Below are positions 1,087-9,399 of a stretch of 64,000 nt of DNA, one piece after another. Under the pieces are notes generated by a model, which was not told the origin of the DNA, ran no database searches, and worked only from the letters and a program-made list of their open reading frames with translations. Both the position numbers and the translations under genes were made by a program. The stretch spans positions 496,001 to 560,000 of the forward strand of contig NZ_CP059205.1 of assembly GCF_014251995.1 (NCBI RefSeq). The letters are read 5' to 3'. The first letter of the stretch is position 1, and every line of letters begins with the position of its first letter. Origin of the DNA: Blattabacterium cuenoti. GTDB taxonomy: Bacteria; Bacteroidota; Bacteroidia; Flavobacteriales; Blattabacteriaceae.

Positions 1087-2114
1087 TCAAAAATTCCTTT
1101 TTATAAAAAGATAATCTTTTCCTATACTTATTTTTTTCATAATTTTTCCCCCTATTTTAGGGGCTTTTAATCCATTTTTTAATACAACATCGCATATGAA
1201 AATCCTACATTCATCCCATATATTATTTTTGATAAAACTTTCTAAAGTTTTTTTCCCTCCTTCTATTATTAAAGATAATATCTTTTTTTTGTATAAAAAA
1301 TTCAATATATTATTGATTATTTTTTCATTAAAAATAATTTGAACATATTCTATATTCTTTTCTTTTTTTTTTTTTCTTCTGTAAAAACAATTGTTTTTTG
1401 TGACCCGTCTAAAATAAAATAGTAAGAAGGTACTTTTAGTTTTCTATCGATAAAAATTCTAATGGGATTATTTCCAAACCATTTTCTTGCGTTTAATTTT
1501 GGATTATCATTTAAAACAGTTTTTTTCCCTACTAAAATGCTGTCTTCTTCCGCTCTCCATTTGTGACTAAATTGTCTGGAATATTTACCACTGATCCAAA
1601 ATTTTTTATTGTTTTTTGAATCTATAAAACCATCATAACTTTGAGCCCATTTTAAAATAATGTAAGGCCGATTTTTTTCATGAAAAGTGAAAAAACGTTT
1701 ATTTAAAATACGACATTCATTTTCTAAAACGTTTTCTATAACCTCTATACCAGACTCTTTTAATTTTAGGATCCCTAGCCCTCTAACTTTATCACATGTA
1801 TCCTGTGTTCCTATAACTACTCTTGGTATATTCTTTTTAATTATCAAATCAACACAAGGTGGGGTCATTCCTAAATGAACACATGGCTCTAATGTTACAT
1901 AAAGAGTTGAATCCAAAAATAGATCTTTATTTTTCACTCCATTGATAGCGTTTACTTCTGCATGATTCATTCCTTTTTTATAGTGCCATCCTTCCGAAAG
2001 AATTATTCCATTTTTTTCTATTACACATCCAACCATAGGATTTGGAGATGTCATTCCCAACCCATTTTTAGCCAATTGAATAGCTCTTTTCATAAAAATT
2101 TCTTTATTCTTCAT
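1087..2114 (-). CDS. ribD: RibD, bifunctional riboflavin deaminase/reductase, one gene in two frames (A13 frameshift)
   Basis: RibD carries out the second and third steps of riboflavin synthesis: deamination of the pyrimidine intermediate, then reduction of its ribosyl side chain. The deaminase zinc site is complete, with HAE at residue 51 and Cys78 and Cys87 in EPC..PPC. The reductase domain starts near residue 148 (PYIILKWAQSYDGF). The first frame ends after 254 residues, just past a run of 13 A on the coding strand (1363-1375). The rest of the reductase, including IIEGGKKTLESF, is open in another frame down to 1087. Adding one A joins the two frames with no stop and gives about 342 residues, the normal family length. 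It is either rescued by transcriptional slippage, a recent pseudogene, or a homopolymer sequencing error. It lies 6 bases downstream of aroE. Confidence 0.85.
1363..1375 (-). other. A13 homopolymer at the ribD frameshift point
   Basis: Thirteen consecutive T on the plus strand read as A13 in the ribD sense strand. With 13 A the frame runs into TAG five codons later; with 14 A it continues into the C-terminal reductase sequence; with 12 A it meets TAA about a dozen codons on. Polymerase slippage on such tracts is documented in other insect endosymbionts and could restore full-length protein from part of the mRNA. Confidence 0.85.
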
Positions 2115-2120
2115 TAAATT

Positions 2121-2879
2121 TTATGAATTCCATATTTTCCAAGACTCTTCTGCTTGAAGATAAAACATTTCTAATCCATTTTTAATCCTCGCCCCTTTCT
2201 TTTCTGCTTTTTTCAAAAATAAAGTTTTACTTGGATTATAAACTAAATCATAAAAATAATGTTTTGAAGAAACATGTTGATAAGGTAACAAAGGGTAAGA
2301 ATTATTAGGAAATGTTCCTAAAGGAGTACAGTTAATAACAATTTTATATTCTTCCAATAAATTTTCATTAATATCTTCATAGGATAGAAATTTATTATTT
2401 CTAGTTCTAGAAACATATTTGTATGGAATTTTCAATTTGTCTAAAACAAATGAAACTGTTTTAGAAACTCCTCCAGTACCTAAAATTAATGCTTTTAAAT
2501 CTTTAAAAGGAAACTTAACAATATCTTTTTTAAAAGATAGTTCAAAACCTAACACATCTGTATTATATCCAACTTTACATCCATTTTTGTTAATTTTTAT
2601 AACATTAACAGATTTTGTAGATTTTGCTTCTGCAACGACTTTTGTTAGAAAAGGAATAATACTTGTTTTATAAGGAATAGTTATATTACATCCCCTTAAT
2701 AAGGGATTTTTAAATAGAAATGAAACATTTTCTATTTTCGGTATGTCAAAAATTTTATAATCTGCATGAAATATAGATTCTTTTTTAAATTTCTCTAAAA
2801 AAAAATTTCTGGAAAAAGAATAACTTATATTCCTTCCAATTAATCCAAATAAAAATTTATAATTTCCTATTTTTTTCAT
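2121..2879 (-). CDS. aroE: Shikimate dehydrogenase
   Basis: AroE reduces 3-dehydroshikimate to shikimate with NADPH, in the route to chorismate and aromatic amino acids. The 252-residue length is normal. The substrate-binding serine motif appears as SYSFS (residues 19-23). The catalytic lysine is Lys71 in NITIPYK and the paired aspartate is Asp108 in GYNTD. The dinucleotide loop is GTGGVSK (134-140), and the C-terminal QAEESWKIW helix is typical. It reads with ribD on the minus strand, 6 bases upstream of it, and follows rpsU after a 159-base gap. Aromatic amino acid supply to the host is a plausible role for a symbiont. Confidence 0.93.
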   Translation of the reverse strand: MKKIGNYKFLFGLIGRNISYSFSRNFFLEKFKKESIFHADYKIFDIPKIENVSFLFKNPLLRGCNITIPYKTSIIPFLTKVVAEAKSTKSVNVIKINKNGCKVGYNTDVLGFELSFKKDIVKFPFKDLKALILGTGGVSKTVSFVLDKLKIPYKYVSRTRNNKFLSYEDINENLLEEYKIVINCTPLGTFPNNSYPLLPYQHVSSKHYFYDLVYNPSKTLFLKKAEKKGARIKNGLEMFYLQAEESWKIWNS

Positions 2880-8787: not shown

Positions 8788-9399
8788 ATGGAATATAATA
8801 CTAATCGTTTAAAATTAGTAATACCAGAATATGGTAGAAACATTCACAAAATGATAGATTATGCAATAAAAATAAAAAATAGAAAAAAAAGAAATCGTTG
8901 CGCCTGGGGAATCATAAAATTAATGATAGATTCTACTTATACTAATAGGTTTAATAATAAGACAATTCCTTATTTTCAACATAAATTATGGAATCAATTA
9001 TTTATTATGTCTAAATATCAATTAGATGTTGATCCTCCCTTTTCTAAATCCAATCTTTTTTTAGAAGAAAAAAAGAATAATTTTTCTTCTAAAAAAAGAG
9101 AAACAATATATCCTAAATATTTAACTGATTTTAGATATTATGGAAAGATAATCAGAAACATGATACATGTAGCAATAAATTGTAAAAATAAGAAAAAAAA
9201 AGAAGGATTATTTTATGCAATAGCTAACACGATGAAAAAAAATTATCTAAGATGGAATAGAAATATAGTAGAAGATAATACAATATTTAAAGATTTAAAA
9301 GAAATTTCAAAAGGAAAAATACGTTTAATAAATACAGATCCTTTACTACAATGTTCTTATATTTTAAGATATAAAAAGAAAAAAATATTTAAAAAATAA
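8788..9399 (+). CDS. DUF4290 domain protein
   Basis: A 203-residue basic protein that matches my memory of the Bacteroidota-specific DUF4290 family, including its position directly upstream of murA. The opening YNTNRLKLVIPEYGRNIHKMIDYAIKI and the later DFRYYGKIIRNMIHVAINCKNKKKKEGLFYAIANTMK look like two copies of one helical unit (YGR/YGK-x-I-x-x-MI), which suggests an internal duplication. There is no signal peptide or membrane helix. Function is unknown. It ends 25 bases before murA and is probably co-transcribed with it, which hints at a link to cell-wall synthesis but does not prove one. Confidence 0.75.
   Translation: MEYNTNRLKLVIPEYGRNIHKMIDYAIKIKNRKKRNRCAWGIIKLMIDSTYTNRFNNKTIPYFQHKLWNQLFIMSKYQLDVDPPFSKSNLFLEEKKNNFSSKKRETIYPKYLTDFRYYGKIIRNMIHVAINCKNKKKKEGLFYAIANTMKKNYLRWNRNIVEDNTIFKDLKEISKGKIRLINTDPLLQCSYILRYKKKKIFKK

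What the first reader, a model, noticed from the sequence alone, without database searches (positions are those of the whole stretch)
1087..2114. ribD split by one base in an A13 tract, with an intact frame if one A is added
The N-terminal 254 residues hold the complete deaminase and the start of the reductase. The rest of the reductase is conserved in another frame, and the only interruption is a 13-A run. A one-base insertion restores a continuous ~342-residue RibD. Both halves look well preserved, so this is either rescued by transcriptional slippage (known for poly-A tracts in insect symbionts), a very recent loss, or a homopolymer error. If slippage is real, riboflavin supply to the host depends on it.
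Basis: partly seen in the sequence, partly recalled or inferred. Interest (0 to 1): 0.6.

Follow-up and report, generated by a model that had tools for sequence, protein, structure and literature searches.

The report
ribD split in a poly-A tract
In a cockroach symbiont (Blattabacterium), the vitamin B2 gene ribD is one base out of frame in a run of 13 A's but otherwise undecayed, so it is probably still read correctly part of the time, as known for other insect symbionts; an interesting but ordinary case unless RNA shows otherwise.

Summary
On the minus strand, ribD (2114 to 1087) is split at a 13-A tract (+ strand 1363-1375). The zero frame stops at 1350-1352, and the last ~90 codons are intact in the -1 frame. 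The genome is a 628 kb Blattabacterium. Of the other 48 genus genomes, 44 hold an open ribD frame, one more has ribD split at another A-tract, and three have none. Window DNA is one base shorter than its relatives at this spot. Since leaving its sister lineage the C-part has evolved under the same constraint as in intact relatives. ribB, ribH, ribE and ribF are intact, and there is no second reductase domain. So the split is recent or rescued. Systematic base-calling error is disfavoured: in 324 kb sampled, 24 of 27 coding A>=11 tracts are in frame, and the three broken ones differ in direction. Error at this one tract remains possible. Best reading: a known kind of event, an A-tract frameshift partly corrected by RNA-polymerase slippage, as reported in Buchnera and Blochmannia. 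Separately, lineages that lost riboflavin genes keep a worn but stop-free RibD frame.

The parts
1350..2114 (-). ribD zero-frame ORF, 254 aa: whole deaminase domain and first ~105 residues of the reductase domain
   Evidence: TIGR00326 246 bits, residues 8-252
1363..1375 (-). A13 tract (T13 on the + strand). Zero frame reads GAA AAA AAA AAA AAG, so it contains A_AAA_AAG
   Evidence: comparison with relatives
1350..1352 (-). Zero-frame stop TAG, ten nucleotides past the tract
1087..1443 (-). -1 frame open stretch carrying the rest of the reductase domain (residues ~252-342 of the joined protein, stop TGA at 1089-1087), including the conserved EGG motif
2121..2879 (-). Upstream same-strand neighbour (252 aa), probably aroE by its sequence, ending 6 nt before ribD: probable shared transcript
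   Evidence: ORF and spacing; name inferred from sequence, not searched

Best explanation
A real one-base loss in a growing poly-A tract has put the last quarter of ribD out of frame, but the gene is still in use. During transcription of the A13 run, RNA polymerase slips and adds an A in some mRNAs (A14; A11 would also work). Those mRNAs give the full 342-residue bifunctional deaminase/reductase, while unslipped mRNAs give a 254-residue product with the deaminase and a truncated, presumably dead reductase. Ribosomal -1 slipping on A_AAA_AAG may add some full-length protein. Shown: the split, the missing base, the intact and constrained C-part, the intact pathway partners, the absence of another RibD_C domain. 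Inferred: the slippage itself, its efficiency, and that the output is sufficient.
For: The C-part on the window's branch has a pos1+2/pos3 rate of 0.21 against 0.32 over the whole tree, and dN/dS with the sister G021 is about 0.15 in C and 0.16 in N. No second lesion in about 90 codons. The ribB-type gene (PF00926), ribH, ribE and flavokinase are all intact in this genome; the only RibD_C match is this locus. The Mastotermes-symbiont-sized genome G035 has ribD split at a different tract (A15), also otherwise intact with partners intact. Other conserved genes are split at A-tracts in the same genome (prmC-like, kdsC-like) and in G017. [quoted passage not shown] Blochmannia genes with such frameshifts are annotated as functional (PMC3017870, PMC4389277); insertions in A/T runs rise exponentially with run length in Buchnera (PMC5574713).
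Against: No RNA or protein data. The Buchnera transcriptome study found no case in which a transcription error restored a frame (PMC5574713). Lack of decay fits a recent loss or a sequencing error equally well. Riboflavin genes have been lost in several lineages of this genus, so loss of ribD here would be tolerable in principle.
Confidence: 0.48

Rival explanations
1. Very recent inactivation: the base was lost recently (or is polymorphic among host individuals), RibD reductase is gone or nearly so, and the gene has simply not had time to decay.
For: A DNA indel in A13 is easy. Ten of 49 genus genomes lack ribH and ribE. The absence of decay only bounds the age of the split.
Against: The rest of the pathway is intact and no backup reductase exists. 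Two of 49 genomes caught with ribD in this brief state, both with all partners intact, is a little too many unless the state persists.
Confidence: 0.24
2. Homopolymer or assembly error: the true tract is A14 (or the true sequence has A5 downstream) and ribD is an ordinary intact gene.
For: Long A-tracts are the commonest error site; estimated completeness of this assembly is 94.8, lower than most same-size relatives. prmC is short by one A too.
Against: In 324 kb (52% of the genome) 24 of 27 coding A>=11 tracts lie in open frames, including the A12 and A15 tracts and four of five A13 tracts, though some of these sit close to the start codon where frame is weakly tested. kdsC errs in the opposite direction. 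Independent genomes show the same kind of splits.
Confidence: 0.2
3. Ribosomal recoding: ribosomes shift -1 on A_AAA_AAG inside the tract, making the full-length enzyme from the unedited mRNA together with a 254-aa form, as dnaX makes two products.
For: The zero frame reads AAA AAA AAG there and -1 is exactly the frame needed. [quoted passage not shown] coli (PMC5009743). The only tRNA-Lys seen in the sampled half of the genome has anticodon UUU.
Against: No significant downstream structure (z -1.22 and -0.39). An A13 followed by G has this phase one time in three by chance. Relatives read straight through and do not conserve the heptamer in a split context.
Confidence: 0.08

Closest known systems
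Poly(A)-tract frameshifted genes of Buchnera and Blochmannia rescued by transcriptional slippage (Tamas et al. 2008; Wernegreen et al. 2010, as cited in PMC3017870, PMC4389277 and PMC5009743)
   Same: Single indel in an A-run of an otherwise intact gene, AT-rich insect symbiont, gene under purifying selection. B. vafer has ribF, another flavin gene, split this way (PMC3017870).
   Different: Blattabacterium is a Bacteroidota symbiont; no transcript evidence here; the tract (A13) is longer than the up to 12 bp mentioned for those symbionts.
E. coli dnaX -1 programmed ribosomal frameshift (A_AAA_AAG)
   Same: Same heptamer in the same phase and same shift direction; one mRNA could give two products.
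   Different: No supported 3' stimulatory structure; site not conserved; it arose by loss of a base in a formerly in-frame gene. In dnaX the shift makes the shorter product, here it would make the longer.
ribD of G035 (chromosome 587,248 bp, the size given for the Mastotermes darwiniensis symbiont in PMC6039017)
   Same: ribD split at an A-tract, -1 frame needed, both halves intact, partners intact.
   Different: Different tract (A15, about residue 167), independent event.

Membership tests
Bifunctional RibD (TIGR00326) | Profile match over both domains above cut-off | tested here: met
   Joined reading 278.7 bits against cut-off 156.35; zero-frame product alone 246 bits but ends at profile position 244 of 343
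Bifunctional RibD (TIGR00326) | Deaminase zinc motifs HAE and PCxxxxPPC, reductase EGG motif | tested here: met
   HAE and PCVHLGMTPPC in the zero frame, EGG only in the -1 frame
Poly-A frameshift rescued by transcriptional slippage | Single indel in or next to a long A-tract, gene otherwise intact | tested here: met
Poly-A frameshift rescued by transcriptional slippage | Downstream part still under purifying selection | tested here: met
   but a recent split would look the same
Poly-A frameshift rescued by transcriptional slippage | Mixed mRNA pool with frame-restored molecules | not testable with these tools
   no RNA data
Poly-A frameshift rescued by transcriptional slippage | Split shared by related lineages over time (seen in some, not all, published cases) | tested here: not met
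   Sister G021 and all near relatives are intact at this tract; ribD of G035 is split at another tract
Programmed -1 ribosomal frameshift (dnaX type) | Slippery heptamer in phase | tested here: met
   A_AAA_AAG in the zero frame
Programmed -1 ribosomal frameshift (dnaX type) | 3' stimulatory stem-loop and conservation | tested here: not met
   weak folds, z -1.22 and -0.39; relatives read straight through

The most novel reading that the evidence does not exclude
Splitting of ribD at A-tracts is a recurrent, tolerated state in Blattabacterium in which slippage sets the dose of reductase relative to deaminase, with A_AAA_AAG giving a dnaX-like two-product gene.
Probability: 0.05. Interest if true: 0.6.

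Novelty: new member of a known kind. Interest (0 to 1): 0.33.

Why it matters
If real and rescued, it extends slippage-maintained split genes from gammaproteobacterial symbionts to a Bacteroidota symbiont and puts a vitamin supply step on an error-prone tract. It also warns that pathway reconstructions that count such genes as pseudogenes may be wrong. If it is an error or a fresh loss, it is ordinary.

Tried and rejected
A second functional copy of the reductase: none, the only RibD_C matches in the genome are this locus. A standalone 72-aa C-terminal protein from the TTG at 1305: too short for a reductase and starts inside the domain; rejected by inference. Gross base-calling failure: rejected from tract statistics. 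An apparent split next to ribH came from a run of N in G017, not from this genome. The genome-contig scan returned no named Blattabacterium record, so the host species stays unidentified. PF00925 (GTP cyclohydrolase II) is absent from all 49 genus genomes, a gap that PMC9603385 lists as common to Flavobacteriales, so it is not specific to this case. Two key papers (Wernegreen 2010; the 2021 Blattabacterium gene-loss paper) are not held.

Full report
Observation. The window lies at 496001-560000 of a single-contig 628,453-base genome. The zero frame codes 254 residues and stops at TAG 1352-1350. The tract is A13 (1375-1363), and the remaining reductase sequence is open in the -1 frame down to TGA 1089-1087. 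Reading across gives 342 residues, the commonest length among relatives. The C-part is recognised in its own frame at E=4.6e-57.

What it is. The genome belongs to Blattabacterium, the cockroach symbiont: relatives in the same genus match published chromosome sizes exactly (for example 605,745, 622,952, 629,165, 634,449, 636,850 and 587,248; table of PMC6039017). The host of this genome was not identified. The protein is RibD: the joined reading scores 278.7 bits with TIGR00326 (cut-off 156.35), while the zero-frame product alone ends at profile position 244 of 343. Solved relatives include 2hxv, 2b3z and 2g6v. The zero frame keeps the deaminase zinc motifs; the reductase EGG motif lies only in the -1 frame. 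The 254-residue product therefore has a complete deaminase and a truncated reductase. No other RibD_C domain was found in the genome.

Comparison. Of 49 genus genomes, 44 others hold an open RibD frame, G035 has it split elsewhere, and G025, G033 and G036 lack it. Relatives have 33 nt between the conserved ACA and GAATAT, the window 32, so one base is missing. Nearest relatives have A11 (G017, G011, G062), A10 (G006) or interrupted runs (G021). The lost base may have come from the A13 or from the A4 just after it. Longer runs at the same spot can stay in frame (A15 in G010, A13 in G020).

Age or rescue. On the RibD tree the window is sister to G021 (support 72). With topology fixed, the window's terminal branch after the split shows first+second-position change 0.114 against third-position 0.531 (0.21); over the whole tree the ratio is 0.32. 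Pairwise with G021, dN/dS is about 0.15 after the split and 0.16 before it. The C-part has been constrained for most of this branch. A split that is old and unrescued is excluded; a recent split and a rescued split are not distinguished. The split ribD of G035 behaves alike (0.36 after its A-tract region, within the range of intact tips).

Error or not. In the window plus thirteen 20-kb stretches (324 kb, 52% of the genome) I compared open frames with G017 and G021. Three A-tract splits were found: ribD (A13), a prmC-like methyltransferase (A11; one A short) and a kdsC-like phosphatase (A11, needing the opposite shift). Of 27 coding tracts of A11 or more, 24 lie in open frames. Gross undercalling would have broken most. 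G017 shows comparable splits (a RuvX/YqgF-like gene at A13 and a kinase at A10). The rate resembles the 4-8 frameshifted genes per Blochmannia genome (PMC4389277). Gene names in this paragraph rest on sequence motifs recognised by eye, not on a family search. Error at this single tract cannot be excluded without reads.

Pathway. In this genome the ribB-type synthase, lumazine synthase, riboflavin synthase and flavokinase frames are intact, so a ribD loss would strand intact genes. That favours rescue or a very fresh event.

Mechanism. Transcriptional slippage at long A-runs is documented: 12-50% of transcripts corrected in aphid and ant symbionts (PMC5009743), with insertions rising exponentially with run length in Buchnera (PMC5574713), although that study saw no restored frame. 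In addition the zero frame crosses A_AAA_AAG and the frame needed is -1, so ribosomal slipping as in dnaX is possible without any change of the RNA. I found no downstream structure that would mark it as programmed, and the phase has a one-in-three chance, so I rank it low as the main route.

Verdict. A new member of a known kind. Rescue by slippage is the most likely single reading (0.48), recent loss 0.24, error 0.20, ribosomal route 0.08.

Beyond the finding. Ten genus genomes lack lumazine synthase and riboflavin synthase; eight of these also give no match to the ribB-type synthase, one (G009) has only a remnant and one (G023) keeps it. Seven of the ten (G014, G063, G002, G020, G019, G009, G023) still hold a RibD frame of 321-342 codons without a stop at 17-23% G+C, although the catalytic motifs are worn in several. 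Simulated neutral decay to the same divergence gives means of about 10-24 stops (5-14 if only half of the divergence is neutral). Either RibD stayed under selection until the other genes were deleted, or the frame has a use beyond riboflavin. I have not separated these.

Noticed in passing
L113, L115, L116, L117, L030, L031, L141 (G014, G002, G020, G019, G009, G023, G063): Seven genomes that lack lumazine and riboflavin synthase (most also the ribB-type gene) keep a stop-free 321-342 codon RibD frame with catalytic motifs worn in several; a neutral simulation expects about 5-24 stops.
   Followed up: partly
L114 (G035; nt 501-515 of the gene): ribD independently split at an A15 tract in the genome whose size matches the Mastotermes symbiont; both halves and partner genes intact.
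   Followed up: partly
L129:15536-15546 (genome about 315,535-315,545): prmC-like release-factor methyltransferase split at an A11 tract, one A short.
   Followed up: partly
L156:18726-18736 (genome about 438,725-438,735): kdsC-like phosphatase split at an A11 tract in the opposite direction.
   Followed up: partly
L170 (G027:C1:74300-75800): Flavokinase gene ribF is frameshifted in an AT-rich stretch in the genome whose size matches the Nauphoeta symbiont; G019 gives no flavokinase match at all.
   Followed up: partly
L159 near 9240-9320 and L167 near 2950 (G017): A RuvX/YqgF-like gene at an A13 and a kinase gene at an A10 are split in the near relative G017, so A-tract splits are common in the genus.
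   Followed up: partly
all 49 genus genomes: No GTP cyclohydrolase II (PF00925) in any Blattabacterium genome although most keep the rest of the riboflavin pathway; the first step must use another enzyme or an outside source.
   Followed up: no
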